A stretch of 64,000 nucleotides of DNA from Liolophura sinensis. Lineage: Eukaryota; Mollusca; Polyplacophora; Chitonida; Chitonidae. The DNA is taken from assembly GCF_032854445.1 (NCBI RefSeq), contig NC_088295.1, positions 21,129,385-21,193,384 on the forward strand, written 5' to 3'. Each line of letters starts with the position of its first letter. The stretch's first letter is position 1. Positions 17,462 to 63,716 of this stretch are shown in pieces. A program made the translations under genes and the position numbers. The notes below the pieces were generated by a model, which searched no databases, was not told the DNA's origin, and was given only the letters and a program-made list of their open reading frames with translations.

Positions 17462-17537
17462 ATGGAGTTGCGAGTTGGCAACAAATATCGTTTAGGTAGA
17501 AAGATCGGCAGTGGTTCGTTTGGAGATATTTACCTTG
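17462..17537 (+). CDS. CSNK1D/CSNK1E: CK1 exon 1
   Basis: Codons 1-25 plus one base: [20 protein letters not shown] and GDIYL. Donor G|GTGAGT, phase 1. Confidence 0.97.
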
Positions 17538-26500: not shown

Positions 26501-29500
26501 GCCTTGTGGCCAGGGTTTAAGTATGGATATTTTCTTTGAAAATAAGAAAATACAGTGTGTAGCCTTGCTGTAGCACACTGGTATAGGGACATGTTTCCTG
26601 AGCGTGTCATAGGCTACCTCATGCTACAATAAAATAACCTTGGGATCCAGCGTATAGATCTCACAGGTCATGATTTTGACATGGAACTAAGTTTTATTGA
26701 TGCAAAATGTGTTTTATCATATGCTTACTTATGTGTATTGTTAGTTTACTATAAACGTGCAAGATTTTTGTTACCTAAGGATTCAACCAGTGTTCTACGG
26801 TTCACAAGTTTCCATGTACAGAACACACATATCTTGGCACCATGCTTAGAGTCACATCTCGTGGAGATAGCTTGCCTACCTGTGATCATGAGCCTGGGCT
26901 GATCTACTGAACACGGTGCATATTGAACATTTCCACAAGCTGAATGTATGCTTGTCCACTTGATTTTGAAATAAGAAAAGCGCATTTTGTATCTGCTTCG
27001 TCCACATCTGCTTGTATTAGAAGTAATTCACTGAACGTAAATGCCGCAAATTCACAATGGCAGACTGCATACGACTGTAAACCTGATCACGTTACCGCAT
27101 TATAGCTTAGTAATGTTAACCATTAATGGGTTATGCAAAATCAATGCATTAAATGATGGAAAGAAGAGTTCAACTAAACTTCGACTTGTCAACATGCCGG
27201 TAAACCAAGTCTCTCTCTCCCTGCACTTTCACACCTGGGTGTAGCCATTCAATAATTTGATTAAATGTCTGGAAATATTATTTATTCATAATTAGCTTCC
27301 CCTATATGTAATGTGGAATTAAGTGTAAAAGAAAAACATTGAAAAAGGGTACGTTAATCTGAGTAATATGACACTTTAAATCACTAGATGTTGAGGCTGC
27401 TTTTATGCATTTTTTCGACCAACACTCATTAGTCTCTGCTGAATTGTGTCATACAATTCCAACTTTTGCAAGCTGTCAGAACTTCGCCATTTAGTTCAGT
27501 GTTAAAAAGACACTACTCAAGTGACAACAAGCATATCAAATTTCTCCACAAAATGTTTTGTCGTCCTGCATAAGGTTGTAAAAACAGGCCATTGCAGTAC
27601 CGTGGACTTAGTTTTTTAAAATTTTCAGATGATTTTGCCTTTAGGAAGGTGTAGATTTTACAGAACAGTACGGAAGGATTTTGTACTTGCCTAAAATTGC
27701 CATATCTGCTCTCGTAGTATAGGCAGTATATCTGTTTTTGATGGCTTTAAAGTCATTATGTTTCTCAGAAGCCCTCCAGGTAACATACTGTTGAGATAAT
27801 TTATAATCTTTATAATGAGGACCAGTAGCTAAATCTGGAAACTCCTTGAAAATTATTGGCATTTACTGAAAGTGTACAAATATTAATTCCTTTTTAAGGT
27901 CTGCCTGTCACAGTGAGCAAAATGTGCTTTGTATTGCTGACGAGACCACACACATGCGGAAGTAATGCTGCAACAATTTGAGATCAAACTGGCAAGGAAA
28001 TGTAACCAATTATAACCTCTTCTATTATTCATAGAAAAATACTTTTCTTTCCATAAAATTAAAAATTTTAAACCTAAAATATGAAATATCACATGGGTCA
28101 CACACCAACAGTAGGAAATGAAGCAAATAATATCGTGCTGTTTAAGTGTATTTCTTGGTGAAAAATCCTTGTTCATTTGCAGTTATAGCTGCTGTCATTC
28201 GAAATCTAAGCCACCTGACATGAAAGTACACCACAGATTTTTGCGGGACATGATTTGGGTCCCATTATATCTGATTACACACTATATTATAACAAGCTAT
28301 ATTGAGGCGTATTAGAGCGAGGCTACGTAGAAGAGGTTGACTCTATATTACAAAAAGTCAGCTTAAGCCAAGTCATAATGAAACAGTCTTGATATTTAGG
28401 AAGGAAACCTAGCAGTATTTTATGTAAATTTAAAAGCATGCCATTGCATTTGTCGGCTGGAATACATGAAGTGTGTATTTGGAAGTGTTTCAGTTGATAT
28501 TAAACGTGTAGTCCTTAGTCCCAGCCATCTATAAATCTCCGGAGGTAGGTTTCCTCCGGGCTCTGTCAGTTCAGGTTAAAAATTCATGGGGTGGTTTCAC
28601 TGATGTTTTAATTAGATGTTTTTTTTTTGTTTCAGATAAGCAGAATTGAATATATACATTCAAAAAACTTTATCCATAGAGATGTGAAGCCTGACAATTT
28701 TCTCATGGGCCTTGGCAAGAAGGGCAACCTTGTGTATATAATAGACTTTGGTTTGGCGAAAAAGTATCGAGATGCAAGAACACACCAGCATATACCATAC
28801 AGGGAAAATAAGAATCTCACAGGGACGGCCAGATATGCCAGTATAAACACACATTTAGGAATAGGTATGTACATATATTTCTAGTCACTGCTCTATTAGC
28901 TCAAGCTTTACAGTATGGTTTACCATTCCAATTAGTAGTTACGAAGGTTTCCTGGATGTGTTTGAAGGGAACAACATCTTTACTGTTTACATGTACATGA
29001 GGTTGATCTTTGCTTTGTTCATGGATTTGTTGTGTGCGCTTTATTCTTAATCTCTGTGTTGTAAAATTGAATAATCGTAATAATAAGAAAAATGTAAATG
29101 AAGAGTCCAGAAATTTTAGTCTTTATCACAGCTGTACTAAATGCATAAATAGCTCCATAGCTCCAGAATTATTAGGGATCTACAAAACACCAACTGATTA
29201 TTTTATTAGATCAAATTCATGACTGTTATGAAAACGTTTCCTCTTGAACATAAATTACTGTAAGACCTACATTTAACATTAAGCTCCCAGCTTCATATGA
29301 TCCGACTCTTGACCAGTGAGATTGCATATTCAGATTCATCTCTCCTTGATTTGGTTATGACCTTCGTCCAGAGGTTTTCCATATGACTGGGGACGATATG
29401 TGGTTTACACTGATTTCCTCCACCAATAAATCTGACCTCCATCAGAAAAGTGAAAAGTTTTTCTGTATGACTGTGGCCATAAATAAATCAAATAAATAAA

Positions 29501-32500
29501 ACACTGATTAGGGCCGATAAAGACTCCCAGGGCTTGATGTCCATGTTACTGCCACCAACCTGCATTTAAGCGATGCCTTGCAGCTATCGTTTACCGTCTG
29601 CTTAGCTATCTCGTTATCAATGTTTTGTGACCATGGCCTTAGATTCAGTCCGCACTTTGAAGAGAGAAAAGTTAACAATTTATCAGATTCCCTTTGTCTT
29701 CAATCCAAACAAGAAGTCAGCATTAGTTTCGCTTTTAGCTGATGCAAAAATGAAAGAACATGCCACAATACGAGAGCACATGCACGCACAAGCAAAGGGA
29801 GATAATTTTGTAGCTCTCAGCACAGTTATCTCTTGTAACATCTCTCTCTGGTTTGCAATGGCCGCAAATGGTGTTTCTTACGTTTTCATTGAGTAATAAA
29901 TCTGTTGTATCTTTATCATGCCACCGTAAATTAGAAAGCAGAACTTATATCTGTCCATACATTGACATCTCATGCTTGGCCTGCGATTTTATTTGTTGAT
30001 TGCTTTTTTGGCAGGCTGGTTTTAAGTTGGCCTGCTAAGGCAAATTTTCGACCTGCTTTTCATCATTTGTAGGCCCCCATTTCGAACCCTGCCAAAGAGG
30101 TTTATCATCTTTTTGTCAAAGATATGTTTATTTCGCCAGTCTGAAGATTTCCCTGTCTATAAAAATGATAGAATCACCCTGTCTGTCTGACATGATTTTG
30201 TCCTGGCATATCCTCCCAAACAACCACGCTGATTTTGATGAAACTTACCATACATCTTTCCTATTATCTTAACTTGTGCATGCTTATGTTCAGTGGGTAA
30301 TTACCCCGTTGAGGACTTGGATTAATAGTGTTTTTCCATGTATTCTAAAGTACTGAACCTATTTCCATGAAACTTAGCGTATATCTTCCCTGTAATCTAA
30401 ACTTTTGTGGGCTCAAGTTTTATTACAGTCAGATAGTTATTTACATAATTAGTCTTGTTCAGGTCATTAGTGCAATGATGGATGTTCATGTATACAGATT
30501 TTGTCCGTGTAACTCCTGCTAAAGTATTGCACCAAAACAGTCTGATTATGAGGGGTTCAAGACTCATGGCTGGAAGCACTATTGTAATTGTTCGGGAGAC
30601 TGTTGTTCTCACTTAGATTATTTTTCTTCTCTAACCACTCTTTTTTTCGTTTTGCGAGGAAACTGCGTGTCACAGCTGTTAACTTTCAATGCATGTTCAA
30701 TACCAGATCACTTGGGCAACCTGCCGGAGTATAGAACTTTACCCACCTGTGACCTACTTTTTGGCCATATTGGAGCAGTATGGAAGTCTAAAAAAAACTA
30801 CTTCTCCAGAACCACAGAGCTGATTGCATTGAAAATTGATATGCATGTACAAGACTACTGGGGGTATTAGGATTGAAAATTGAAAGCTTGCCATTGGTCG
30901 TTTTAATCATGTGGATGAATTTGAAAAAACAAGGTATAGCAGTTAGATGTAGTTTGGCCTGTTGAATACAACGTTGGCTTTTTGTTTTTTTTTAACGATG
31001 TAGAGTTTTCCTTGAACTGCAATTTTAGCTCATTTCAGTGTCATTTTTCAAATGTCACTGTAATAGTTATGGAACTGAAAATTGGTCAGTAGATAGATCA
31101 AGTACAGATCTTCATTTTTGACTGCAGAGCTACGACTGATAGTTTTGCCATTAAAATGTGTTTAAAAAGTCAGCTCGTTTGAATATTTGCAATATCTCCA
31201 AAAAACCCACAGGTAGAAAAAACAAACCTGGTATTTTCAGTGACAAACATATGGAGCAGCTTTTGACATTTTGTGCTGTTTGGTCAGTCATGTGATTTTG
31301 CAGCCATTTTGAATTTTGTTGATAAGCTTAAACTATCTTTTTCGGTAAATTGGCTAATGATCTGGATGAAATTTCACTTGCAAGTGTTAGGTAAATTCTA
31401 GATGACATTTTTAAGTATACGCAATTGTTTAATATAAGAAAAAGATAACAACATTGATACCAGAACATCAATCTAGTAAAAATATACCTTTGCTATTTCC
31501 CTTCCCAAAAACTTACCATGCTGTTTTCCAGGTTGTGTTCTAGTATTTAAAGTCGATGGTTGTGTGGCGTTATTTACAAGGAAGCACACCACTACATTAG
31601 GCTTTATATTTGCAGAATTGTCTTGAATCTGCCGACCGCTTGTCTTCCTCTCCACTTGTGTGTTAGGCCCATACTAGAATGGAACATGGATGGTTGCTGT
31701 TTGATTATTGAAATAATAATGCTGCCTGGCATATGTGGATAAAACACCCATGACAATAAAGCATGTGTGTCGATTTGAAGGCAGACTTTCTATTTATTAC
31801 AGACCACTTGTCTACTGTGGCAGGAACATGACATAAATCTGACAGTTGAGTCTCAATGAGGAGGGGGAGGTGGGGAATGAGGCTACACTCTCTTTAGATT
31901 AATTTTTACAAAGATACTGTGTGACATGTTACCACAGGTATTTCAAGAAAAAGTTAGTGATATCTGTCATTAAATGTCATTAAAGTAGCTCAACCGTGCT
32001 TTAAATTTTACCATACAAATGCCTTCAAAGCCCACTGATGTACGTACCAAATGACCTTCAGAGAATATCAAGCTCTGAGGAGTACGTTTTACTATGAATG
32101 GCGTCGGTTATTTCACAGAAAATATAATGATGCAGCATCGTGCTTCCGGTTCCTTAACATGAAGTAGCTGATGGTCTCTTAAGAATACCTTATTAAAAAA
32201 AAAAAAAAAGATTTATAGAGTTGCCAAGTACATCAGAAGAAAAAAACGTCTTAGCAGTTAAATCTGTTTAATTCACTCCCTTTCCTAAATAACTTGGGGT
32301 ATATTATTTTTGTCTTTCCCTTTAATTTGTTTATGCCTTAAACCTGTAACATTCCTGGTTTTCATTGTAGAACAAAGTAGGAGAGATGACATGGAGTCTT
32401 TAGGTTATGTATTCATGTACTTTCTGAGGGGCAGTCTACCTTGGCAAGGTTTGAAGGCAGCTACAAAAAGACAGAAGTATGAGAGAATAAGTGAAAAAAA

Positions 32501-35500
32501 GATGTCAACACCAATTGAGGAGTTGTGTAAAGGATTTCCATGTGAGTATTTTTATCAGAAAAGGAAACTTTCACCTTCAAAGCTGGAAAGGCAATTGTGG
32601 CATGTATGTACAGACTTGCTGCGTTTGATTTTTAGGTCGCCTGTATAAGTATTGGTGTAGCTTATGCCATACCCTAATTGTCATTGTCTGGAATGGTAGC
32701 GGTTCTGACCGGCTACAGAAGACGATTAAAACGGGAAACATGTACATAACTAATGGGAAGATTGCAACATAGAGCTACGAAAAGGGGTGCATAAAGATAG
32801 TTTAGTAAAAATGGCAGGAATCGGGATGACTTCAAAAATTTTCTTGCAAATTTGATCTCATCTACTCTAGAGTTTTGGAGTGTCAAACCTCACAGTGATG
32901 TAGAAAATCCATTACAGATGGCTGAATGGTTTATATTTACTAATAGTAATGTGGCTTATGTGAGGATTACTGGCCCCACAGAATCTTATCAGATATTAAA
33001 GGTAGGATGTTAAACCCCAAGCACTCACTCACTCACCAATATTAAAGTTCACAGTGGCTTTTTTAATTGTAAACCTCTAGTACCAGAACTTTTTAAAAAA
33101 AACTTTTCATGTCATCGGTAACCAGTCTCAAGTAATTCTTTCAACAACATCAGGATTTCCTTGAATGATCAAAGGGATGTCTTGCTGACTAGAGTAAGAT
33201 ATCACTTGTGTTATTACGCACCCCATGCCATGACGTTAAAAACAAACACTTTGTTTTATGATGTTCCAATCCAAGCTTAGGAGTATGACGTCATAATACA
33301 AAGTCAGTCAAGTTTAACATTTCTTACATCACAGGATGAGACACGTCATACAAGACATCATGTGCAACGTCATGCTATATATACAAGTATTTGAAGGCCT
33401 GCAACTAAAAACATTTCTTAAACTTGCTCAAATATGCAAAATCACGATATTGTCAGAATATAAATAATAAATAGAACATTGCACAGTGAAGGTTGAATAT
33501 CATAAATACTTTTCTTCTGAGGGGTAACAATGATAACCCACCAGACATGAAGCATCAAGTGGGTTATCCTTTTCACCTACAGTGTTGGCTTGGTGTGGTG
33601 CTTTTTTCTATTATGAAGGGCTTTTAGAATTCATGTTTTATTTCTTTAATTGCAGCTGAATTTGCTACATACCTGAATTTTTGTCGGTCGTTGCGATTTG
33701 ATGACAAACCCGATTACTCCTACCTTCGGCAGTTATACCGAAACTTATTCCATCGACAGGGATTCACATATGACTACGTTTTTGATTGGAACATGTTAAA
33801 ATTTGTAAGTATCATTTTGATTCACCCATTTTCATCCAATACACTGGTTATTTTTCTGAGAGGGAGCCTTGGCTCAGTGGTTCATTTGGTGCGAGACTCC
33901 CAGCCATAGTCCACTCAAGGTGTGAGTTCAGTCCCCATTTTGTCATGAACAACAGTCCATCGATTCTCAATTTCATTTTTGGGCCATCTTTCACAGAGCA
34001 GTCTTACACAATGTTGATTGTAACTACCATTGCCACTTGCGTCTTTAACATGTTGTTTTCTGGTATTTCCATTCATGTTATGACCTCTGTCACTCTGGAG
34101 TTCTTGCCAACTGGGTTGGGCATCCATTTAGACTACTGTAGTTTGCTGACCTTTCCAGTATGCCAGACCATGAAATTTGACACTTTTGCGTAGAATGATC
34201 AAAACTTATAAACTTTGCCGCAGTGGTGTGTTAAGTGATTATTTTCTCACATCGACCAATGGCTAGACAAACATAGCAAGATGAAAGTAGTCTGCTGGGT
34301 ACAGGCCTGGGAACAACTTTATTTTTATTCATGAATTAAAATGAAGAAAGTCTCAAGCCACAGTTATTTACAAACCTGTGAATTCTGAAACTGTCTCAAA
34401 CTGGCAAGATAACGACTGCTTCTCCGGCTGTCAGCTACACTGCATCTGTGAATGCATAATACAGGAAACAGTATCATCTGTTCATGGTCCCATAAATAAA
34501 TGTAGCATATCAGCGTGCAGCGAAGACCTGACTGACAAACATCTATCCTTAAGCTTCCATAAAATACAGGGAGGAGTTTTCCAAGCCTCGCGCATTGGGT
34601 GTTTCGTCATCACATTTTAGAAGTGTTAGGCGAGAAGAATCTCCAGACATTCCCGATATCATAAAATGGTATCATGAACCCAACATGCTTAGATTGAACA
34701 TGTGTTCACAGATGTGAAAGTGGGTCCTCACTTATACTAGCTTAATATTGCAACAATTGTTAACATTGTTTTAATGAAAGGCTAAATGTATTCCTACTCA
34801 CATCTCCTGGGAACTCAGTCATGTGTGCGTAACTCTTACACATAACTGACAGCTTACAGAATTCAACATTGACCAATTAGATAAACATATTTTCATTGAA
34901 TATCCTTCAGAGGAAAAAGTCATCATGATTGTAAAATCTCCCGCAAAATCTAGATGAGTAGACTGAAAATTTTACAAGCTGTAGGTTGTAATGTGCCTAG
35001 TGAAGGGCCTTTGCATTTTAACTTGGTACTTTGGATTTGACTTTGTTACTGAACCATTTCAGTAAAACCATCAGAAAGTCATGTGCTGGTATATTGTCAC
35101 GTGTAATGTCGGAACTTCAAAGACCTTACCCAGAGCTGAGCAAAGTTGCGATTTGCATATCAATACAACTCCGCTCTTTATATTTGAATACACTTAGTTA
35201 ATTTTAGATCGACTCTTCCCCCAAGTTTCCACTCAAAGAATGCTATACCTAGAGTATACAGACGTATGTATGTTTTGATGGAAACAAAGTGGGGTTTTCT
35301 ATGAAGAAACATGTAATGCTGAGTCTAATTTCTGTAAGCCGGAGCATCATAGTGGCTAGTTTTTAACAATGTTGTGTTCAACCTAATGAAAGGACAAAAA
35401 ATACCAAAAAATTTTTAGACAAGTGCTCATTTTCTATATTGTCTATAGTTAAATGGGTGAGAACCATCAACCACCAGCTGTGTGCTATTCAACTTCTCTG

Positions 35501-38500
35501 ATTAGATTTCTTTACAGCCCCTGACCCTGTTTTGTGACAATTGTGAATTTACTTTCGAGCATTACGATCATGAGTGCTGCTCAGCTGGTTGAAAGGTCAA
35601 CGATTTATGGTAGCCATGTGACCAAACTGATCATTTTGTCCAGTCAGATTTTGCTCAACTTGTATGACTTTAGATTTGTTGTGAAGCATCTCTCTATGCT
35701 GTTCATATTACGCTTGTGAACTAGGTTATTGTGGATGGCATGCAAGAGTTGCTAAACTTTGAGAAGGACAGGTTGTCATAATTCACTTAGGTTTGTAATT
35801 CTTCTTCAAATTCTATATTGTAAACATAGGTAATGTTTTAGCACACTGTTTTGAACGGAAAATGTGTATTTATATTTGTGCTTTCCTGTGGAATGTTCTG
35901 TGTCGGTATTTGGTAATGTGCTTTTCACTTGAAGTAGTAAGAAGATGAAAGATGTACTGAGAGAGTGAGGTGAATTCTTGTTGCTGCTGCTGTAGGGTGG
36001 TCGTAGTAATGAAGACTCAGAAAGAGATAGAAGACACCAGCATATCCACAGCTCCTCCTCAAGGCCACACGGAACAGCAGCAGGTAGAGTCCGACAAGAA
36101 CAGGCAGGAATATCTGGTGGACCCCCAGCCTCAGGAGACTATGGCAGTAAGTCGGCTTACATTAATTATATTAACAGAATTTTTTATTTAGTGTAAATAT
36201 TTTTGTCTGCAATCTGCAAATAGAAACAAGGTAAAATTCTTAGATCTACCAATGGCATGTTGCATTTTCTGGGTGCATGCTACCTGTATTCAAGCAAGTT
36301 TTTTTCTAATTACACATAGATACTTGTTTTGGAAATATGAGCATTATTCATCCATTGCTATGAACTGTATTGAAGTATGATGTGCATATCTTGACTTCCA
36401 GATGAGTGTTTTCATGTTTTTTTTTGTTTAATTAGATGTTCCATTATTAAAAGATTTGGGTTGTTGCATCCCATTTCTACATCCTTATGAGTTCAGGATT
36501 CTTTCCACAGAACTGGTACTTGTGGCTTTTCTCCTTTTTGGTTTATCTTTGGAGTGTACCTTCTGGGTGTGTGGGTAAAGGGAAACATTTCACTCCAAAT
36601 CAAATTTGAATCCTTTCGTTTGCTTTTTAGTCCTTATTGCTTATTGTTTAGGGTTGATAAAATATTGCAAATTTTTCTCATTTACCCCCTAATGATAAAA
36701 TTTTGAAACCTGTGTACTTTGTGAACTGGACCATTATCAACACATCACTATTGTCGGAACAATTCCTTGAATACTAAACTGCTGCCTACTTCATTTGTGT
36801 TTTTCAACTTTAAACATAGCCTTACATCATATGAACTCTTCACTGCTCATTTTGTTAATGTAATTGCAAATTTGTGGTATTACTTAGATTTTGTGAAATC
36901 CAAGGATGTAGAAATCAGCTTTTGATTCAATTCTTGTGTAGTTTTACTTGTACTCCTCTAAACATGTATATATGCCATTGTGTGAATATATGTTATTTTC
37001 TGTCAACTGAAGGAAATGCATTGACATGAGCCCAGTTGTTACTGAAATTGATGTACCCTATTTCCCTAACCTTTTCGCATTCAAAATAGCAAGTTTCAGT
37101 GCAATTTATGCTTGGTTTTGAGGACAAAACTAGATAGGTTGGATTTTATCAGTAAACACAGAATAATGTCTTAAGAATATGCTTGAATAAACACCTTGCA
37201 AATATGCGAAAAGGTTGAAGAATTACAGTAGTCTTGCATTTCAAGTAGCACTTTAGTGGGATGTGTGTGTGTGTTTTTTTCATCAAATGCAGATGCAGAA
37301 TTTTTTTTGTTTTGGTAATGAATGTTGTCCTGCTGTATCCACCACTCCACATACAATGTACAGGTAACGAGTCATGGAATTGAATATTGTTCTATCAGAT
37401 AAACAAGGAGTCTGCCAAGCATATGATGCCTTAAGTCTGAAACAAGGATAATCCAGAAAAGCAAACTTATCTTTTGCCTGGTGGTTGTTTGACTTAAACA
37501 GCTGCCTTTTTCCAATGTGCCTTCTCTGAATTACCTCCCTTGTTACCTTATGATGTATTGAGAGATAAGTTTTTGAGGTCTGAAACTACAAGAAGTAGCA
37601 CCCCGCTTACTAAAACTTGCTGTATATAGGTAACAGAATGTAAAAAAACATGATGTCGCCTTTTGAAAATCACAGAAATGTTGAGAGATCTTGAATGAGG
37701 TCCATGTTTTTTGGCTTAAGAGTTTGCCAAAGCTGCGTGTTGTATATGTTAGGGCCAGTATTTTAAAATTATCTCCGAATGGATTTCATAAATACATAGC
37801 GTTCTTCCTGGGCCTTCCAAATAAATGTATAAAATTAAAATCTGCCTTAAAGCTAGGTCTTCAACTAGCTTATGCTGATTTAACTCCGAATCTTGCCATT
37901 AGCCATTTTCTGAGGTCTCGCCTAACCCCAGCTTACTCCTAAAAAGGCACCTTTTTAATGGGAGAGTGACCTGAATGGAGGTAATTCAGTGTCAGCCTAT
38001 TGGAATTTAGTTATTGAAAAACAGACATAAATCAAGTTGACATACAGGTCACTTGCAGTAATCCCTGAAGTAACTGTTTTTTACTCATTGCATTGACATG
38101 TTTCAGACAATTCTATCTTGTTTCTTCCAGATAAGGTTACTTTCATGTGTTTTTCAGATGAAACCATGTTGGCCATTGCGTGGTACATATTTCATTATGT
38201 AGGAACATTTCCTTTTAAGCTCATTCACGCTTGACATGTGTAGTCTATTGTGTATTCCTGCCTTCAGGAGGACATTTTGTGGGCAAACATAGTCATATTA
38301 ATCTTGCATTGCAAAAGAACACTTATATGTACATGTACAGTTAATTCCATTGTTTCTTGTGCGACACAAGTCTCCATTTTTACAAAGAATTTGATTTTGA
38401 AGTCTGCAGGCATTTTTTGTTTCACAAAAGGTGCTAATAAAATGGAGGTAGGCATTCTTGGCACACAACAAGTATTAATTGTAGATTCTAGCAGCACAGG

Positions 38501-41500
38501 GTTCTTGTTACACCCTGTCATGAAGAAATTAAAATCCTTCCACTGATTAGTTTTGGTTGACCCTCTGATTTATCTAAGCACCAAGGAGGTTTTTAGTCAC
38601 TGTACGAATAATCCGAAAAGTAGTCTAATCTCACATGTAGCTGACACTTTTTATGTCAGACTTTTGTACTGAACATATGTTTATCATTGTTGTTGCATAT
38701 TCGTACAAAACCCAACATTTGACAAATTAAAATGCCTGTGAGAAATAAAATGTGAACTCCTCTAAGGGACAATCAGTCATATAATCTGTGAGTGACTGGT
38801 AACATCCAGAGCAGTTACTGAATGTGTTTCATGTGTGGAGATAGCATGGAAAAAGCCAGCATGGCGGACTTATTGCTAGTTTTTGTTTTGCGATATCAGT
38901 GTTTTTCTTGGTCGACTTCCAACTGACGGCTTGAAGAAATGTAATATGTAGGTTTGAATTTTGAAACCATGCTACAAAGACCGGGACCAGCCTTACCACG
39001 TTTTTGTTCAGTAATAACATTTGATACTTTAGTTGTGTGACTTGTTAACAATTTATTTTGTGAAAAAAATTTGCTAACACCTCAATTTTTCTGAGGTTTT
39101 GGTCAGAAAAACAAAAAATGTTGAAAAGAGCTAAAATTTGGTTCTTGGAATCATATCAACCTAGTTGAAATTGGTCATCTTTCACCAGATCATTCCTAAA
39201 ACTTTACACACCATGCCATTTTTATCCTGATTTGGACTTCAAAATGGTTCATCATTCTGCATTAACATATTTTCAGCAGTATTCTGTTGACATGTTGTGA
39301 AAGCAATGCATTCAGAATGCTTTTACAATTGCCTTCTTCCCCTCCTCCCACCCTCTTGTCACCATTACAAAAGTCCAAAATGCATCATAGATTTAGTCAG
39401 TGACATGGTTTCAAAAGTATTAACGGACCTTGCATTTTGTCAAAATCCATTTGGATACTCATAGATGATCCACCAGCATCCATATTCTCCTTGTCACTAC
39501 TAGTTTTGTCAGCTCACCCTGATCACCTGACCATCGGTGGATCAATTAAACCATGTTGTATGCATATTGTCGGCTTAAATCAGATGGCATGTCAGGTATT
39601 TGATGTTCAAATTCCTATGAAAACTAATATTTTCTGTAACCAGTGTTACTACTCACTCTTCACAGAGGGTGCAAATGAAATACCAGAGCTAGAGTGCATT
39701 TGAATCCTCCCCCCTCCCCAGTTACCTACGCTACTTAGGTAGAATGATAATTTTACATGTTGGCGAGTACAGTGTGCTTTCTAGCACACTGTACTCGCAC
39801 ACTGTAGCTATGTTCATCTTAATTACAGGAAAATCTGTCTGACCATTATGCCAGTTTTAACAGAAAATGACAAACCATCAACGGTGGTAATTGACATGAA
39901 AATGACTGCTTGTATCAGTGAACTCAGACTACTATTTAATGTGACATGTGATTGGCTCAATGAAAATTACATGACCAATGAATTGTCTTGTTTCATAATA
40001 CCAAATAAAAACACATGTCCACATCTCTGAGGAGACACATGGTATGAAAAGTGACCTCAACAAAGGTGGAAACTGCTCATAAAAATGCTAACATATGGCC
40101 ATTGAAGTATAAGTTTATCAGTCTGATCACTGATAGCGATGGTTATATAACTAAACTGCAATGCAAAATATGTATGATGTATCTGTCTGCCGTGTACGGG
40201 CTGAAGCCTGTCGTGGAAATGCGAAAGGTGTTTCACTTGATGCGACAGTCAACTATTTATATGGTTGATGTATTAGATAAACAATGAATATCAAATGTAA
40301 TTTAGTGATTAATATTTTAATTAGCGCTGTTTCCAAGTTAAAATCAAACAAACAGTATTATTTAAAACAGTACATATATATGACAATTCTGTACGAGAGG
40401 GTACCCTCATACCTGTCTAACCTGTTTAGTGTGCCTGTTCAAAGTACAGGCCTAGCTTATGGCCTACCCTGAGCATTGGTGTCCAATAACAAGGAAAGCG
40501 ATGTTATACAAAATGTTATGGGTGCCATGATATCTCAAAAAGTACTGCATGTGTTGAGCTCATGGTTTGCGCACGTATACAGAGCTAAGGGGATATTCCA
40601 TTGTTGATTCAGTGTGGACATATTAAATATCATAAATTACTAACTTCCTGACTGAGTGTATTGTGTATTAAAACTAATGTTAAACAAAATGTTAGGCATG
40701 TTAGAGGTGGTGTCTCAAAAAAGTACACCATGTATTGACCTGAAGTTTTACATGCGTATAAATCACTTTGACAGACGGGGATGTCTCTTATGTATTAGAA
40801 TCAGTGTTAAGAATGGTATCTCCAAATATACTGCATGTGTTCAGCTCATGTTTTGTATATTTGTAAAGCATAATAACATGATCGGGATGTTACATTATTT
40901 TTACCCTGCATGTGTGATAATGGGGAACTCATAATCTCCTTCCTACCTTTTAAAAAAAAGGGTCCAAAGCTATTGTTCTTTCCTTTATTAAGTCACAATT
41001 ATTGGTGTATGTGTGATTATAAAACTCTTATGAAGTACACAGGCACTGACAGAAAAAAACATTTTACTAGGATTTGGACCTCTTCCTCAAGTCTCCCCAT
41101 TGGGAGTAAATTACAAAATTCATGGGTTCATGAACAAGACTATGTATTATGAGCAGTATTTCTGATCTCCATTACTGATATTTTGCATGATACAGACATT
41201 AAATAATTTCTGTAAGACTTTCGGTTTTCAGTTTATTCAGAAAAAAAATTCTTGCCTGATTAATGAACAGGACTTAATTTCTACTTCTTGTATCTATAGT
41301 ATATTCTGATAGTCAGTAGGCTACTCAATTTCCATGCTGTTTAAAGAGGCTTCGCTGGAGATTTTTGACAAATGATAATTTTTTTCCGTTTGCCAAGAAT
41401 AGCTGAAATTATTGCTTTTCGAAGAGTATCAGACTCGTATCTGCATTATTTGCAATGTGCACATGATTGTAAAGTTTAAAAAGTTATAATAAAGCAGGCT

Positions 41501-44500
41501 GCATAATAAATTTTTTGAACTTTATTACAGCTTTTGAACAGCAACATATGTACAGAGGTGGCTCATAATTTGTATAAGGTTATTTGGGCTATTCTAAAAT
41601 AATAGCAGAAAATCGACTGGATTTTCGCTGCTTGACTTTTTTGCCAAAAATCTTCAAAATAGCATCTTAAATGATGATCACATCTTAGTGGGTCACTGTC
41701 ATATAAGTGATAGGAGTATTATGTAAAACACCAATCAAATAAATCTTTGCAGTGGAAGCCTACATGTGTATGCAAAGGATGCATGTGCCCTGTCAAGCTA
41801 TATTGATAACACTGCAGTGAGACGTTAATTTGCCCAGTTGTCACAAGTCTGGCTTAGCATGTTTAAACCGTTCATGTCTTATCTTTTCTTAAGGGCACTC
41901 TTATCCAACCTCCTATCACCCATTTAGTTAAGTCCAGAAAGAAATGTTCCAGAGCCCCCAAACAATTTTGTGTATGCACGTTCCTCCTTTGTTTGGTGCA
42001 AAATAGAGGATGAACGATAGAACACTTCACCCATATCCCATATAATGATTCAGTGCTTGTGCATATATACATGTAGTCTGTAACTCTGCTTTGCATGCAA
42101 ATCCTCCAGAAGATAGAGGATGATATGACAGTACAAAACAAAGACTTATCGGTAGCTCGCATGTGTCAGTTATGAGACCTGCTATATATTCACTTCAGTT
42201 CAGGGGTTATATATGTACCTTGGGGTCAATTTCCCACTTAGCAACCTAGAAATAATTGGTTTACACCTCCGCCTGTCAATCCATCGCAAAACACTTTTCC
42301 AGAATTTTCGGTTGTACTACTAGTAAATTGAGTTTCACTTTATTCCGGCCATTTTCTTTTGTCAACTTTCATGTAGCTATTATTCTGATGGCACAAATGG
42401 GAGGGGTTATTCAATGCAAAAAGCAATGCTTCCAGAATTATGGCAGTTTTTATGCTGGTTTGGACTTTGATGATCTCTGAACTTCCTTCAAAATGGTTTA
42501 TTCTGAAATGAGTCTTGGCACGTACCTTCTATTTTCAAAAGTAATGGCTGCTGTTGATATGTTGTCAACATTTCGCTTAGCTACTATTCTGACAGCGCAA
42601 ATAGGGTACACAAGTATTGTGAAAGCAATCCTTGCAGAATTTATGTTTCTCCTCCATCGCAGACTTAGTCATTGACATTGTTCCGAAGTGAATAATTTGT
42701 TTCTTAAATACCGTGGGCAAACAGCCAAAACTAATTTGTGCCCAGTGATCATTAATGAAGTTTTTAATACATTTTATACATTTGCTTTTACTAATGCAAA
42801 AGCATCATTATTGTTAGACTGTATATATGGTACCTAAATGCTTGAAGCATGTCGTAATAAAGTTTTTATTCTGTGATCTGTTAGGGAAATAGTGATCAGG
42901 ATGTCCACCTTTATTACCAAGTCTTTGCTCTCTGCTAAGAGTTTTTGTGTGATTTGTGTGAACATTTTCACCACCACAGCATGTTGCTGTTGCACAGTGT
43001 TTTCAGAATTTTCACAGCTCAATTCAAACTACCCTAAGAAATCTTTGTCAGTGCAACTTGTTCATGATTTTTAGAACAATATTTCAGTGTGTTTTAGTGA
43101 ACATTATCACCACCACGTGGAGATGTGCATGTGACTTTGTTGCTGTCATGGCTTAAATCACTGTCCTTGCATGTTCAAGTAGCAAAGTGGTCTATTAAGA
43201 TAACCCAGAATCGTATCTTTTTTTGTCTAATTGTACTTAACACATATGCTGGTGCATTATGAAAGCTCAACATTATGTATGCTAAAACAACATGTTGAAA
43301 TTCTGCTGTGGCTGGTTATACACTTCAGTAAGGCAAAATAGTCACAAGTTTCTCAGATGACCAATTTTTCTTGCTTGTGAAATTACCTGTAGTGTGTGTT
43401 TGACATAACATGTCTTAGGCTTTGCTGCACAGTCTCCATGGGGAACTATTATTTTTGATCTGAACATTTACTTGTCATTCTTGATAGGTAAATAAATAAC
43501 TTGGGTGACAGTAAATAATTGTGACCGTCTACTTGTTATCCTCCTATTCTAGATGGGGGACGCTTGGGAAGCAGACACCTGTATACGTGGCTACGCAGTG
43601 AAGGCCTGTACAGTATGTTGTCCGTTGACATTTTTGGTCTGCTCTTTATGATGTTGATATAGTATGTGCATGCTTGGTTTTCAGTTTTGGAATAAGCATG
43701 CATAAATTTTGCAGATTTTTCCTTGCCTCCTGTGGTTGGTCGATAATCAGGGAGGGAGAGGGATGTAAAGCGTCGTCTTTCTTTGTCAATTATTGTTGCA
43801 TGTCTGATGAAAGTTGTGTGCTTATAAATTAGATATTGTGGATTTATACTACATTTATCTACAACATTTTACAAGGGAAAAAATGAGAGGGGCTTGTGGG
43901 GGGTGGGGGGGGGGGGTCAGGGTGTGGTTATGTAATATCTTAATTTACCTATACTAATCACTCAAATGGTCTGTGCACCCTCAAGTGTAAAGAAAACTAA
44001 CATTCATTGAGTGCATGCATCACTTATTTAGTGCACCCACTAAGGAAGTAGGTAATGTAAATGTAACAGTTTTTTTTTTTTTTTTGTTCTCTTTTTGTCA
44101 TAGAAAGCTACAGTAGACATGGGATTAAATTGATCTTGGCCTGGGTGGATTTGTTTTATGTTCACAGTAGCAATAGTGAATAAGTGATAGCAGTGTAAAG
44201 ATAGATGTTATTCTCAGATAATTTTATTTTGACGATGACAAGATAACGAACACTGTGGCATGGGACATTTTAATCCATGTTCTGCAGCAGTTTTTGCAAT
44301 GCAGCAGGATTTGTTTTTGTTCTAGTATGGGACAATTCACTTCTCTTAGCAGACATACTGCTGTCTGATATTTAGACACAACAGCATCTTGAATTATGTA
44401 GATTCTTTTTTTTTCTCCACACTCAAGCTATTAAATTTTGACATCTTTTATGCATTATGTTCTTATGGCCAGCATTATGTTCTTACACAAAATAGATGGA

Positions 44501-47500
44501 AGATATAATTTCATTACAGTGTCTTTTGTAGTCATTTGTAGGCAGATCAGTGTCAACAGAAAACAAAAATCATTCGTTACATGTATGTATATACATGAGG
44601 TAATAATTAAGTAGTACATAGAGATTTATTCAAAGATTACATTTTTATAAACTACACTGAACTTCAACCTTTGTGTCAACAACTTGTACAAAAACTGAAA
44701 CAATAAAATGAACAGGAATTTAACTTCTATGAACTGTTTTAGTTTGCGTCAGAAAAAATTTGCAGAAAAGTTTTGTTTATTACTGAATGTCATTGCACAA
44801 AGCTTAAAAGTTCAGACACATATATTTTTCAATACAAATGGACAACATACATGCATGCTTTAATTAACCTCTTGCAAGTTATTTTTGATTTTGATAATTT
44901 ATATTTCCTGTTGGTTTCAAGAAAGGTGTTATAAACTATTTTGACGAGTCTGATATCAGATGCACTTGTATATTACTACATGTGCCTTGTTTTTTATTAA
45001 TTTTCTATTTTTGTGTGTGTCTTCTGTAAGCATTTGCTTGTCTATGCTTTTGTTAGTATAGTCTCCATGACTGCTAAAACAGCTACATGCATACATAGAT
45101 ACATTTAATGCTCTTTTTCTGTGTGAACTATATGGCTTGTTCACTTATGTATTCACTTGGCACTTGTGTTCTAGAAATACAGTCCCGGAAGGAGAATGCC
45201 TGCATTCCACTGATTTTATATGAAGAAAAAGACATTCATTTTGAAAAAAACTGCTTTAAAGCTTCGAAGATGACAAGTATAGATCTTCTAAGAGAGCAAA
45301 TGTCAAACCAAGGAAATCATACTAATTCTTTCTTCACTAAACCTGCGTTTCTGTGCTACATGTTTCTCTTAATATTGGAGAATCATTCCACATATTCCTG
45401 TATCCTGATTACCCAATATTCAGTGGATTGTGCCTTAGCCCAGTGTTGCCAACTGCGCAAAGTTTCATCACTAATAGACAAAATAAACATGAGGAAAAAC
45501 ACACCCTGCTTAGCACAGGTAATAATAGCAAGAAGGCACACACTAAATTTAGAGCAGAAGAAATGAACTTCTAAGGGATGTTCAATCTTTTAGTTCTGTC
45601 CAATTTATCTGTTGGATAGTGTTTAGCTAAGCAAAATTTATTACGGAACAGTTGGTGGTTACTTTTTTTCTCAGGGGCTATAAATCAAACGAATCACCTG
45701 TTTATTCATATCTGGCCTTCCCTTTAAATATATTATCATCCTAACCATAGAAAACTAAACCTACAGCAACTGTCACTCAATTTTTAGCATTTATGATAGT
45801 GTATCTACAAAGTGTTACAAGGGCAACAGTACCAATTTCTCTTTCGGCTGCAAGGGACATACCGCAAACGTTAAAAAAGTTGTGGTGGTGTTGTAGACGT
45901 CGTCAACATAAAGTCGAGACTTCAAGGTATCTGCTGACACATGTCTGACTTTGTGTGAACAGTTGAATATTCAGTTTTATCCAGGGTTTCCCTTCGACCA
46001 TCAACTCACTCAAGTCACTGTACTAAGAAAGCCTGACTTTTTTTTAGTCAGTTACCTCCCCTTTTTGTCTAGATGCAGGGAGGTTGAGCAAACTTGAAAT
46101 GTCAGACACAGTATTGTGTTGTAATTATGCGGCCTAATGTGTAACTGTTCTGCTGTACAGATCATTGGGAATTATGAATACTTCGTATTTGGTTAAAATT
46201 GGACTTAAAATTTGCTTTTATTCTATTTTATTGTTTACATGTGTGATCCACGAGCGTAAGTTGTGTTGTGGGAATCTTCACTCTGCATCATTTGCATGTT
46301 ATCTCGCCAGGTGGACAGTTTAGAAAAGTGATGGATTTCTCCTTATAATTCTCTTAATTGACATTTTTTGGAAAATATTGGCCTAGGTGGTTTAGTTATG
46401 AGTCATATGCAACTCATATTTGTATTTAGCTGAACCAACTCAAAAATTCAGAATTTCTTTCGACGATATGTCCTTTTGAGTGCTGTAAGTGCTATCATTG
46501 TTATTTATTAGCATGTCTTGGCATGCTAGAGTCTGCTAATTTGTTGTTTGTAACATACAGGGCAAAGCTTATATGTAGCTTCACAGTTATTATTTATATC
46601 TAGATTTATGAATGATTAATTCATGTCTGAACTCACCTTTTGGAGGTTTATTCCAGCCCTGCCCCTTACCCTCCAACTTTTGTATATCTGCTTGTCTTGC
46701 TACTGTTATTATCACATGAAGACTTTCTTTTGATGGTGTTCTGTTTCCCATGACTGTGTCAGTAAAATCAGTGATGCAAAATTTCCTGTGGGTTATGTTG
46801 GTGATGGTGAAGTAAATTAGTCTGTAGTTCCTTGTGATGGGAATATTGACAAATCAATTTTCTACCCATTGTTTAACTCATGACCTTATCAACCCAAAAA
46901 GTTTTACTTTCGGTGAGTGGAAGTGTATTATATTTTTGTCTGGACACTTTCCTAGCATTCTCTGACACAAGGCGCATGCTTAGCAAAGATCACTATTGTC
47001 TGCTTGCTTAGTTTCCTGTGTGCACTTTGACCTGACCTGCACTCATTTACTTGTTTAGCATGAAAGGCTCTGGCATGGGGTATTACCAGGCAATTGCTAG
47101 CGTTTTCAAGTGGTCATTATTCAAGTGCTAATTTTTAAGCTGATAGGATTGTTTCACTTATTGCTTATGAATCTGTGACAATCCATGGTCAAATAGATTG
47201 TTTCTCCAGAATAGTTCTGAGCAAAAATTTACTGTTGGCTCTGGCTTGTTGGCTAAATTGAAGATGATCAGCCATCATACATGTAGTATAAAATAGTATG
47301 ACTAGTCCTGTTTTTGTCCAATAGATTTTCGGGGAATCCCCAGCCCGCGTTATAAGGACAGGCCTCCTACGAGACTTAATCTGACATCTCGTACAACAGA
47401 TATTCCGGAGGGAATGGCAGAAAGTCGAATGAGTGAGAGCCGATTGGCTACACCATCTTCAGGGGGCAGACTGAGCTTAAAGGGGTCATCTTTGCCAGTG

Positions 47501-49252
47501 CCTATTGGTGGTAGCCGAGAGAGTGGTAACGTACGCCGTGGCACAATGGACTCTAGGTCATCTGCCATGCAATGGAAAAATCGACCTTAATGTGTGTTCT
47601 TGCTTCTTCTACCAAAAGTTCTATAAGGGTGTTTGCCCTTGCAGTGATCTGTCCAGAGTGGATGGTTGAAGAACAGTTTTATTCATTTCAGAACATTCAG
47701 AGTACATAGATCTTGTTACAGTAACTATGTTACTACACAACTGCCAAGATTACAAAGCCCAAAAGACCCTCTGACTTTTGATGTACATACATTATATGTG
47801 TAAAACTTCAGTGGATAGTGGTATGAATGTGAAAGTAATATTTTCAGTGAGGGAGACGTTGGTTGCTCAGTTTGTTGTTTTTTCTTGTCTTAAGGAATTT
47901 TTTTTTTTATGCCATCCAGAAAAACATTTTAAGGTACACAATTATGAACAACTGGCATTAACACAGGTGATGCTATGTGATCCATTTATGCTTCACCAGT
48001 TAACCCCTGGTATTTTGTATTGCTAATTTGCTATAGTGGCTGATTGGATGTCTTTGCAATATTGTTTTTTGTGGCTATTGGTGCAGCATTGCGTGACAAG
48101 GTGAACAAAAGTGAAATGATTTATTTATTTTTGAACATGGTATAGTATCATGGACGCATTTCACATGTTACAAAAGGCAGGTAAAGTTCATAAAAACACC
48201 AACAAAAACATATATCCTCTTGTGCAATACCATTCTATTTCCTACACAATTTGTGTACTCTATGGGAGTATACAATATACACACCTGAAACAAAGGTTAC
48301 CCATGTATACTATGTTCTGTCAAAGAATATTATGGAATTTTTTTTTCTTTTCTTTTTTCAGTATGTACAGGTTTAGTCATACATGAACATGTAATGTCTA
48401 AGCAAATTTTGTCATTTTTATGTATTTCTGAATAGCATTTATCACTACTAAACAGTGATGTGAAGGCATACATACCTTTTGCTGCATTGCCCAAAGACCG
48501 CTGTTGTGTGAAATCCCGTTTTAGCAGTGGTAAAAATGAAGAAAAATTAATTAAGTATAAGGCAAAGAAGGCTACATTTTCTAGTTAAACTTATACAGTA
48601 GTAGGTCTGTTAATAGATTTCTGCTTATCCTCATTTTTACCGAACAGTTATTTGAACCTCTTCCCTTTCATTGGGACTTTCAGAGGACATCCAAATAATG
48701 CCTGAAGTCAGGTAGATTAAGTGAAAAAGGTTGGGTGTGGAAACCAAGGAGGAAACTTCTTACTATTGTTGGTTAATATATTGACATGAACTGGGCAGTG
48801 TGGATTTCATTTGTTTTATTTTTATTCAACTATATCAATAAATGTTTATAACAGGCCATGTCAATGCATATTAGTGTTTGGTTACATTGCTTTCAAACTT
48901 ACTCTATGAATCTCATGTACTTTGTCTGTTGTGTTTGCTACATGAACTACCTCACTGTTGTATGTGATTTTTTCCAAGCATTATTTGATGCCTTTTATTC
49001 ATGTTTACTGGAACAGCCACTTCGCCTCGGCCAGTATCTAGGGAACGTGAGCGCAGAACCAGTACTAGACTACATCGAGGTGTTCCAACAAGTTCAGAAC
49101 TGGCCCGAGATCCCACAAGAGTGCATGTATCAGCTGCCCTCATGCAGCAAGGGCTTATCAGTGGAATTAACTCTGGATTACGTAGAGGAAGCGCTTCAAA
49201 AGATGGTGAAATGATGGCAAGGGCAACATCTGCTAGACATTTAAAACATTGA
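17462..49252 (+). CDS. CSNK1D/CSNK1E: Casein kinase 1 delta/epsilon (doubletime-type), complete gene, 9-10 coding exons
   Basis: A Ser/Thr kinase that phosphorylates PERIOD, Dishevelled and other primed substrates in the nucleus, cytoplasm and at centrosomes. Exons 1-6 encode exactly 295 codons ending DWNMLKF, as in human CK1 delta and epsilon. The P-loop is [11 protein letters not shown] (16-26). The ATP lysine is K38 in EEVAIKLE. The catalytic loop is HRDVKPDNF with D128, and DFG starts at D149. A basic [13 protein letters not shown] follows the activation region. Exon 5 carries [10 protein letters not shown] where vertebrates have FNLGSLPWQG. Exon 7 begins the regulatory tail ([19 protein letters not shown]). 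The last exon gives [20 protein letters not shown], close to the human tail. Splicing exon 7 to the last exon gives 423 codons (human 415-416). Including the phase-1 exons at 43553 and 47325 lengthens the tail. G at -3 and +4 of the ATG supports the start. Confidence 0.97.
17538..19128. other. CK1 intron 1, 5' part, no feature seen
   Basis: AT-rich. A 120-codon open frame at 18343-18705 has no recognisable content. Confidence 0.5.
19129..20506. mobile_element. Possible non-autonomous hAT-like DNA transposon, 1.38 kb
   Basis: The left end CAGGGTGTGCACAG (19129-19142) faces an inverted right end CTGTACGAACCCTG (20493-20506), 11 of 14 matching. Subterminal CTTGAAACTCCTGG on the left is also echoed inverted on the right. 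No transposase frame remains. GCAAGC and GTAAGC flank the ends, a weak target duplication. It lies in CK1 intron 1. Confidence 0.5.
20507..23896. other. CK1 intron 1, 3' part
   Basis: AT-rich with a SINE tail at 22093-22140 and a G-run at 23391-23416. Open frames of up to 110 codons (20863-21195, minus) show no known domain. Confidence 0.5.
22093..22140 (+). mobile_element. 3' tail of a second SINE family
   Basis: AAAATTGTTGAGTACGACG, then TTAAACCCCAAGCACTCGCTC: the same tail as the SINE at 52975-53320. Only the 3' end is present. Confidence 0.7.
23897..24007 (+). CDS. CSNK1D/CSNK1E: CK1 exon 2
   Basis: 111 nt, phase 1 to 1: [19 protein letters not shown] (with the ATP-binding lysine) to KMMQGG. 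Acceptor a long T-run plus CAG, donor G|GTAAGA. Confidence 0.97.
24520..24745 (-). repeat. Dispersed repeat, minus-strand copy in CK1 intron 2
   Basis: The reverse complement shares GCATCATTTGCACGTTATCTC, CAGACAGTTTAGA, GATTTCTCCTTTTAATT and AGTATTTAGCTGAACC with the plus-strand stretch at 46258-46470. Identity is about 70 percent by eye. Confidence 0.7.
25651..25845 (+). mobile_element. MetaSINE-like SINE, diverged, in CK1 intron 2
   Basis: Begins GGGGCCTCCATGGCCGAGAT (tRNA-like head) and keeps GGTTTCCTCCCAGTGTAATTC and the tail GGTGAAATAAATAAG. No clear target-site duplication. Confidence 0.75.
25991..26186 (+). mobile_element. MetaSINE-like SINE abutting the exon 3 acceptor
   Basis: The element (26002-26175) begins GGAGGCTCTGTGGCCAAGGT and ends CACCAATCAAATAAAATAAA-like. 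AAATATTTTAT (25991-26001) and AAATCTTTTAT (26176-26186) flank it. The second copy is part of the pyrimidine tract of the exon 3 acceptor (AG at 26203-26204). Confidence 0.85.
26205..26353 (+). CDS. CSNK1D/CSNK1E: CK1 exon 3
   Basis: 149 nt, phase 1 to 0: [20 protein letters not shown] to LLLADQL. Acceptor TATTTTCGTTAG, donor TTG|GTAAGT. A SINE ends 29 nt upstream. Confidence 0.97.
26354..28635. other. CK1 intron 3, no feature seen
   Basis: AT-rich intron with short open frames only. Confidence 0.5.
28636..28864 (+). CDS. CSNK1D/CSNK1E: CK1 exon 4
   Basis: 229 nt, phase 0 to 1: [46 protein letters not shown]. It holds both catalytic aspartates (D128, D149). Donor G|GTATGT. Confidence 0.98.
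28865..29284. other. CK1 intron 4, 5' part, no feature seen
   Basis: AT-rich, nothing recognised. Confidence 0.5.
29285..29501 (+). mobile_element. Old MetaSINE-like SINE copy
   Basis: GATTTCCTCCACCAATAAATC, then GACCTCCATCAGAAAAGTGAA and a (AAAT)n-like tail match the family's 3' domain with many changes. In CK1 intron 4. Confidence 0.55.
29502..32370. other. CK1 intron 4, 3' part
   Basis: AT-rich. An internally duplicated segment lies at 30215-30425. Open frames up to 89 codons without recognisable content. Confidence 0.45.
32371..32541 (+). CDS. CSNK1D/CSNK1E: CK1 exon 5
   Basis: 171 nt, phase 1 to 1: [51 protein letters not shown]. Acceptor CATTGTAG, donor T|GTGAGT. Confidence 0.97.
32542..33655. 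other. CK1 intron 5
   Basis: Contains a short SINE tail (GTTAAACCCCAAGCACTCAC) at 33000-33041. Nothing else recognised. Confidence 0.5.
33000..33041 (+). mobile_element. 3' tail of the second SINE family
   Basis: GGATGTTAAACCCCAAGCAC followed by TCACTCACTCAC, as at 22093 and 53290. Confidence 0.65.
33656..33804 (+). CDS. CSNK1D/CSNK1E: CK1 exon 6
   Basis: 149 nt, phase 1 to 0: [20 protein letters not shown] to [12 protein letters not shown], the end of the kinase domain at codon 295. Acceptor AATTGCAG, donor TTT|GTAAGT. Confidence 0.98.
33862..33945 (+). mobile_element. tRNA-like SINE head in CK1 intron 6
   Basis: GGAGCCTTGGCTCAGTGGTTC (A-box-like) and GTGAGTTCAGTCCCC (B-box-like) about 50 bases apart give a tRNA-like outline without a proper acceptor stem, 58 bp past exon 6. 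The 135-codon open frame crossing it (33786-34193) is not a gene. Confidence 0.5.
33946..35995. other. CK1 intron 6, remainder
   Basis: AT-rich, nothing recognised. Confidence 0.45.
35996..36146 (+). CDS. CSNK1D/CSNK1E: CK1 exon 7, start of the regulatory tail
   Basis: 151 nt, phase 0 to 1: [20 protein letters not shown] to [11 protein letters not shown]. Equivalent in position and charge to the human [20 protein letters not shown] segment. Acceptor TGCTGTAG, donor A|GTAAGT. Its 5' end follows a GCTGCT run. Confidence 0.9.
39763..39798. repeat. Perfect 16-bp inverted repeat with 4-nt loop
   Basis: GCGAGTACAGTGTGCT, loop TTCT, then AGCACACTGTACTCGC. All 16 pairs match. Confidence 0.95.
41690..41746 (+). 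mobile_element. SINE 3'-end fragment
   Basis: GTCATATAAGTGATAGGAG, then AAAACACCAATCAAATAAATC, the 3' end of the MetaSINE-like family. Confidence 0.75.
43553..43612 (+). CDS. CSNK1D/CSNK1E: Possible 60-nt cassette exon of CK1 (exon 8)
   Basis: Exactly 60 nt between a good acceptor (CCTCCTATTCTAG) and a good donor (ACA|GTATGT), phase 1 to 1 and open. It would add about 20 residues, [19 protein letters not shown]. The tail family is too variable to confirm it by similarity, so it rests on splice sites, phase and openness. Confidence 0.5.
43613..47324. other. CK1 intron 8
   Basis: Contains a G-run at 43888-43917, a T-run at 44070-44085 and a dispersed repeat at 46258-46470. A 152-codon open frame at 45108-45566 is discussed under rejected items. 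Confidence 0.5.
46258..46470 (+). repeat. Dispersed repeat, plus-strand copy in CK1 intron 8
   Basis: Shares TGCATCATTTGCATGTTATC, GACAGTTTAGAAAAGTGATGG and TATTTAGCTGAACCAACTC with the inverted copy at 24520-24745. Confidence 0.7.
47325..47590 (+). CDS. CSNK1D/CSNK1E: CK1 exon 9: 201-nt cassette or alternative last exon
   Basis: After acceptor TCCAATAG and in the incoming phase 1 it reads [37 protein letters not shown] and [12 protein letters not shown], ending MQWKNRP and TAA at 47588-47590. A donor G|GTAACG at 47526 lies inside it. Using that donor makes a 201-nt phase 1-1 exon that joins in frame to the exon at 49017. Read-through instead gives a terminal exon (433 codons in total without exon 8). 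The Ser/Arg/Pro-rich content fits a CK1 tail. Confidence 0.75.
47591..49016 (+). other. CSNK1D/CSNK1E: 3' UTR of the short CK1 form, or intron 9
   Basis: Non-coding in both readings. If exon 9 is terminal this is its 3' UTR, closed by AATAAA at 48837-48842. If the donor at 47526 is used it is intron. Confidence 0.55.
48837..48842 (+). terminator. CSNK1D/CSNK1E: Possible polyadenylation signal of the short CK1 form
   Basis: AATAAA about 1.25 kb past the TAA at 47590, upstream of the conserved last exon. Confidence 0.4.
49017..49252 (+). CDS. CSNK1D/CSNK1E: CK1 last exon (conserved tail)
   Basis: 236 nt entering in phase 1 after [30 protein letters not shown], then [12 protein letters not shown] and an Arg/Ser-rich end SARHLKH, TGA. 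The first 20 residues closely match the vertebrate CK1 delta/epsilon tail as I recall it. Confidence 0.93.
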
Positions 49253-63590: not shown

Positions 63591-63716
63591 AGGATAATAT
63601 ATGCAGAGACTGACTGCATACAGTCAGTTTTCCACGTCAGATACTTCACGGGCAATAGAGTGGGCACATTGTGATTTATGCTCGGCTTTAGTCACTTCTT
63701 TATTTTGTATTATTTT

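What the first reader, a model, noticed from the sequence alone, without database searches (positions are those of the whole stretch)
35996..49252. Modular CK1 delta/epsilon tail: every splice junction after exon 7 is phase 1
Exon 7 ends in phase 1. The 60-nt exon (43553-43612) and the 201-nt version of exon 9 (47325-47525) are both phase 1-1, and the conserved last exon (49017) enters in phase 1. All combinations are therefore in frame, giving predicted proteins of 423, 443, 490 and 510 codons. In vertebrates the tail is the autoinhibitory, autophosphorylated part that tunes activity on PERIOD, so inserting 20 or 67 residues could alter kinase regulation.
Basis: partly seen in the sequence, partly recalled or inferred. 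Interest (0 to 1): 0.75.

Follow-up and report, generated by a model that had tools for sequence, protein, structure and literature searches.

The report
Splice-variable tail of chiton CK1 kinase
A chiton's gene for the clock-related kinase CK1 delta/epsilon has one fairly well-supported and one merely plausible optional tail exon that keep the reading frame, so it could make several versions of its regulatory tail, much as insects, vertebrates and worms are already known to do.

Summary
The window holds a complete CK1 delta/epsilon gene; exon 7 ends in phase 1, the 60-nt (e8) and 201-nt (e9) candidates are phase 1-1, the last exon (e10) enters in phase 1, and the four combinations give 423, 443, 490 and 510 residues. 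Reading through e9 to its own stop adds 433 and 453. The genome matches the chiton assembly published as Liolophura japonica (corrected to L. sinensis). Human CK1 delta aligns co-linearly with the e7-e10 form and lacks both extra exons. e9 beats chance as an exon (0.01 expected per intron in simulations, about 0.1 by the window's other sequence). e8's splice sites are at chance level (1.2-1.9 expected), but it is GC-rich and coding-like: plausible, not shown. "All phase 1" holds for any frame-keeping exon in a phase-1 intron, so it is weak evidence. The architecture is published for insect dbt (Pyrrhocoris: two skippable tail exons, four isoforms); vertebrate CK1 delta and C. elegans kin-20 also vary there. 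A new member of a known kind; RNA evidence is missing.

The parts
17462..17537 (+). coding exon 1 (ATG at 17462), ends phase 1; an acceptor-like AG just before it (17458-17459) suggests an upstream 5'UTR exon
23897..24007 (+). exon 2, kinase domain, ends phase 1
26205..26353 (+). exon 3, kinase domain, ends phase 0
28636..28864 (+). exon 4, kinase domain, ends phase 1
32371..32541 (+). exon 5, kinase domain, ends phase 1
33656..33804 (+). exon 6, end of kinase domain, ends phase 0
35996..36146 (+). exon 7, first tail exon, ends phase 1
43553..43612 (+). candidate cassette e8, 60 nt, phase 1-1, 20 residues [20 protein letters not shown]; plausible, unproven
47325..47525 (+). exon e9 in cassette form, 201 nt, phase 1-1, 67 residues; weak donor GTG|GTAACG
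47526..47591 (+). in-frame read-through of e9 to its own stop (47589-47591): alternative C-terminus [21 protein letters not shown]
48837..48842 (+). AATAAA, the only AATAAA/ATTAAA listed between e9 and e10; possible poly(A) signal for the e9 read-through form
49017..49252 (+). conserved last exon e10, enters phase 1, ends TGA; contains the human-like [18 protein letters not shown] motif

Best explanation
This is the chiton CK1 delta/epsilon (Doubletime) orthologue with a tail whose length is set by alternative splicing inside one 12.9-kb phase-1 intron. The ancestral-type product joins e7 to e10 (423 residues). e9 is a real extra tail exon, used either as a 67-residue cassette through its weak donor or as an alternative last exon with its own stop. 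e8 is probably a second, 20-residue cassette. Shown: gene, frame and homology of the base tail. Inferred: that the modules are used, and that they tune activity by changing which tail residues are autophosphorylated and dock back on the kinase (e9 adds 17 Ser/Thr; e8 adds 3 and a W/Y/L-rich stretch).
For: The 423-residue model matches human CK1 delta 6pxn at E 1.3e-211, co-linear (with small gaps) across the e7-e10 junction to residue 375, with neither cassette in the human protein; the tail alone still matches it (E 2.7e-5), and e10 against the human tail piece is reached by 0 of 2000 shuffles. e9: open frame, acceptor score 3.5, 1 of 100 simulated introns has an equal, codon score reached by 7 of 348 null segments and GC by 8 of 348, one match in the genome, itself. 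e8: GC 34/60, reached by 30 of 12365 intronic 60-nt windows, and codon score reached by 7 of 733 null segments. Donors of e8 (0.0) and e9 (1.1) are weak, and the acceptor of e10 (0.0) is the weakest of the nine acceptors scored, which fits optional use. Precedent: two tail exons of Pyrrhocoris dbt, skipped singly or together, give four isoforms (PMC9794997, section 18).
Against: No transcript data were available here. By splice sites alone e8 is at chance level, and 18 candidates lie in this intron at slightly lower cut-offs. One non-exonic stretch of the window is as good as e9 on splice sites and length. Weak donors are not proof of optional use: exon 6, in the kinase domain, scores 0.1. The splice matrices are recalled generic metazoan values. 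The codon score barely separates the gene's own exons (-0.08 to 0.15) from null segments (mean about -0.13), so it reads mostly GC content. e9 does not resemble the human tail (223 of 2000 shuffles), nor does e8 (1726 of 2000). No relative of the e9-e10 tail was found in the prokaryote and viral collections, where none is expected. e8's hydrophobic fraction (0.35 against 0.08-0.21 in the other tail modules) is unlike the rest of the tail.
Confidence: 0.6

Rival explanations
1. e9 is only an alternative last exon: it ends at its own stop (433 residues) and is polyadenylated downstream, comparable to the variable 3' ends of vertebrate CK1 delta and C. elegans kin-20. The 47525 donor is not used, so the 490 and 510 forms do not exist.
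For: Frame stays open to 47591; AATAAA at 48837; the 47525 donor lacks G at +5 (GTG|GTAACG, score 1.1). kin-20 has distinct last exons (PMC6071595, passages).
Against: 47525 keeps the frame into e10, and it is the only donor scoring above 0 inside e9 before the stop. A kinase-domain exon of this gene (e6) has a lower donor score (0.1).
Confidence: 0.3
2. e8 is a pseudo-exon: a chance open stretch with splice-like ends in a 12.9-kb intron.
For: 1.2-1.9 such candidates expected per intron by splice sites and frame alone; weak donor (0.0); unusual amino-acid content.
Against: GC and codon scores are outliers; no simulated intron of 300 gave an equal on all criteria, though the cut-offs were fitted to e8.
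Confidence: 0.35
3. There is no alternative splicing: e9 (and perhaps e8) is always included, so the tail is simply longer than in vertebrates.
For: Nothing in the sequence forces skipping; tail lengths vary widely in insects (PMC9794997, passages).
Against: The e7-e10 form is co-linear with human CK1 delta, and donors of both extra exons are weak.
Confidence: 0.12

Closest known systems
Insect doubletime, Pyrrhocoris apterus (PMC9794997: outline, passages and section 18 with the Figure 6 legend read)
   Same: Two tail exons skipped singly or together give four isoforms of the same kinase
   Different: The insect exon 9 is 159 nt, and its sequence could not be compared here; there use is shown by nanopore reads, here it is only predicted; the parts read describe no read-through stop
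Vertebrate CK1 delta splice forms (delta1/delta2), as described in passages of PMC9794997 and PMC9205208
   Same: Splicing changes the C-terminal tail and, in vertebrates, activity towards PER2 sites
   Different: Those forms differ at the extreme C-terminus; here the inserts lie between e7 and the conserved e10, apart from the e9 read-through end
C. elegans kin-20 (PMC6071595, passages read)
   Same: Doubletime homologue whose isoforms differ at the 3' end through unique last exons
   Different: No cassettes described in the passages read

Membership tests
CK1 delta/epsilon (Doubletime) | Kinase domain closest to CK1 delta/epsilon rather than alpha or gamma | tested here: met
   phmmer: delta 706 bits (6pxn, full length) and about 654 for domain-only chains, epsilon 648 (4hni), a plant CK1-like 558, alpha 535, gamma 397 at best
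CK1 delta/epsilon (Doubletime) | C-terminal tail related to vertebrate delta/epsilon tails | tested here: met
   Base tail (e7+e10) matches 6pxn, E 2.7e-5; e10 against the human tail piece 0 of 2000 shuffles. The extra exons e8 and e9 do not match it
CK1 with alternatively spliced tail | Optional exons keep the frame | tested here: met
   Four combinations and two read-through forms open
CK1 with alternatively spliced tail | Junctions seen in RNA | not testable with these tools
   No read data held; RNA-seq of five tissues of this species is described in PMC11068029
CK1 with alternatively spliced tail | Isoforms differ in kinase activity or substrate choice | not testable with these tools
   Needs bench assay

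The most novel reading that the evidence does not exclude
The chiton gene makes six tails from two choices (e8 in or out; e9 absent, passed through, or ended), and e9 descends from a duplicated copy of the conserved last exon e10, so a former alternative end has become an internal module. This would show that modular CK1 tails also exist in Lophotrochozoa.
Probability: 0.1. Interest if true: 0.5.

Novelty: new member of a known kind. Interest (0 to 1): 0.3.

Why it matters
If the exons are used, chitons join insects, vertebrates and nematodes in splicing the tail of their clock kinase, which would suggest that tail choice is an old or repeatedly evolved control over CK1 substrate preference. 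The survey read here (PMC9794997) covers insects and deuterostomes. Among the papers listed by my searches (20 of 31, 15 of 36, 2 of 2, 7 of 7, 10 of 76; titles and abstract openings) I saw no report on lophotrochozoan CK1 tails; subscription journals are mostly not held.

Tried and rejected
e9 as a duplicate of e10: local similarity beats most shuffles (5 of 2000 reach it, one of five module pairs tried; 21 or 77 of 5000 by gap cost; BLASTP E 0.002 over 21 residues), but the global alignment is ordinary (z 0.4) and the DNA comparison gives 90 of 1000. Kept only as the bold case.

e9 or e8 as transposon pieces: each has one match in the genome search, itself (e9 as protein; e8 with flanks as DNA; the tool scores only the best candidates), and no tandem repeats were reported at 36100-49300.

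A nested or antisense gene: the 110-residue antisense ORF over e8 and the 155-residue sense ORF at 45099 have no Pfam match at E 0.001; e9 has none at 0.05. In all, 20 stretches of the window were put to Pfam, so the surroundings were only sampled. e9 has no meaningful match in the PDB (best E 2.3, a flagellar protein).

CK1-type site enrichment in e9: 5 S/T-x-x-S/T pairs against 3.9 expected (P 0.34), not enriched; e10 has none against 3.8 expected (P 0.006, not predicted beforehand).

A first codon training was spoilt because minus-strand loci were not turned: 8 of 25 loci were used. It was redone with 25 of 25 and 5884 codons. Of the 30 loci fetched, five with internal stops (L008, L011, L030, L031, L035) were left out of both trainings.

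Five peptide fragments of the tail, searched in the papers, gave 0 papers. I did not run structure prediction: without an alignment a low-confidence tail would prove nothing.

Full report
Gene and species. The + strand of the window carries a whole CK1 delta/epsilon coding region: exons 17462-17537, 23897-24007, 26205-26353, 28636-28864, 32371-32541, 33656-33804, 35996-36146 and 49017-49252, joined by GT/AG introns, give 423 residues. The best PDB match is full-length human CK1 delta, 6pxn, E 1.3e-211. The genome has 609,464,459 bases in 632 contigs. A chiton assembly published as Liolophura japonica has 609,495,693 bases in 632 scaffolds with 13 pseudomolecules (PMC11068029, passages), and a correction names the species L. 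sinensis (PMC12441733, whole text); the 31-kb difference in length I cannot explain. The mitochondrial genes, named by eye from the translations, run cox3-nad3-nad2-cox1-cox2-atp8-atp6 on one strand and nad5-nad4-nad4L-cytb-nad6-nad1 on the other, which from recall is the chiton-type order.

Observation. The numbers in the finding are right: e7 ends in phase 1, e8 is 60 nt, e9 201 nt, e10 enters in phase 1, and the proteins are 423, 443, 490 and 510 residues. Two more are possible, 433 and 453, if e9 reads on to its stop at 47589-47591. "All phase 1" has less weight than it seems: e7 and e10 fix the phase of the intron, and any exon that can be added or left out there must be phase 1-1.

Are the extra exons real? 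I scored splice sites with generic matrices (recalled, not trained here). At e8's own cut-offs the last intron holds two phase-1-1 open candidates of 36-300 nt, e8 and e9; with both cut-offs lowered by 2 it holds 18. Simulated introns hold 1.19 (100 first-order) or 1.78 (300 second-order) candidates as good as e8 on average, and the other sequence of the window about 1.9 per equal length (17 in about 113 kb), so e8 is ordinary on this count. Candidates as good as e9 (150-600 nt) occur in 1 of 100 simulations and once in those 113 kb, i.e. 0.01-0.11 per intron. e8 is GC-rich (34 of 60; 30 of 12365 intronic windows reach that) and its codon score is reached by 7 of 733 null segments; for e9 the codon figure is 7 of 348. 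Jointly with its splice scores, 0 of 300 simulations and 0 of 17 non-exonic candidates reach e8, with cut-offs chosen after seeing e8. The codon score separates even true exons of this gene poorly. I put e8 at about 0.65 and e9 at about 0.85 for being exons; the figure for e9 was 0.9 before I counted the control candidate in the window. Each has one match in the genome, itself.

Which form is basal? Human CK1 delta aligns through the e7-e10 join with small gaps, ending in the shared [18 protein letters not shown] stretch, so the 423-residue form is most likely the ancestral type and e8 and e9 are additions or optional. Neither e8 nor e9 resembles the human tail piece (1726 and 223 of 2000 shuffles reach the score). 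e9's acceptor (3.5) beats e10's (0.0), its donor is weak (1.1), and an AATAAA lies at 48837. So e9 may compete with e10 and serve as cassette, as last exon, or both.

Mechanism. In human CK1 epsilon and fission yeast Hhp1 the autophosphorylated tail binds the kinase domain and competes with substrate, shaping specificity (PMC11086627, abstract and passages). A CK1 delta splice variant at the extreme C-terminus changes activity on PER2 sites (PMC9205208, passages). By analogy, e9 adds 17 Ser/Thr and +5 charge, while e8 adds 3 Ser/Thr and a hydrophobic stretch. CK1-type S/T-x-x-S/T spacing is not enriched in e9. That either module changes kinase activity in the chiton is inference.

Known kind. 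PMC9794997 (outline, passages and section 18 read) reports tail splicing of dbt in many insects and of vertebrate CK1 delta (its results say all vertebrates analysed; its discussion says all tetrapods and one variant for each Danio paralogue). In Pyrrhocoris the skipping of exons 9 and/or 10 gives four isoforms, three of which make up 99% of dbt transcripts in a brain transcriptome. C. elegans kin-20 has three kinds of 3' end (PMC6071595, passages). The chiton gene is therefore a new member of a known kind. The listed results of five literature searches showed no lophotrochozoan case; the oyster kinome paper mentions four CK1 proteins and, in the passages read, no tail splicing (PMC4883820). 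No animal sequence collection was on hand, so conservation of the cassettes remains untested.

Noticed in passing
window 9710-10012, strand -: An open stretch with a Nop domain (E 1.6e-11) and a sub-threshold match to the start of a Prp31 C-terminal domain (E 7.7e-4): the upstream neighbour looks like the splicing factor gene PRPF31, on the other strand.
   Followed up: partly
L005 5999-7015 (contig C362): An intronless CK1 open frame of 339 codons, 75% identical to the CK1 delta/epsilon kinase domain and by recall CK1 alpha-like: a likely retrocopy or intronless gene.
   Followed up: partly
window 14221-14469, strand -; similar words at 63675-63893, strand +, by eye: A 56-residue translation of this stretch has 37,776 first-look candidates in the genome, of which 150 were scored and 150 matched: a very abundant dispersed repeat.
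   Followed up: partly
G000 contig C99 (108,685 bases): Seven cox1 matches about 15.5 kb apart on one strand: the mitochondrial genome appears to be assembled as a tandem concatemer.
   Followed up: no
window 49017-49252: The last exon's peptide has no S/T-x-x-S/T pair although about 3.8 are expected from its composition (P 0.006).
   Followed up: no
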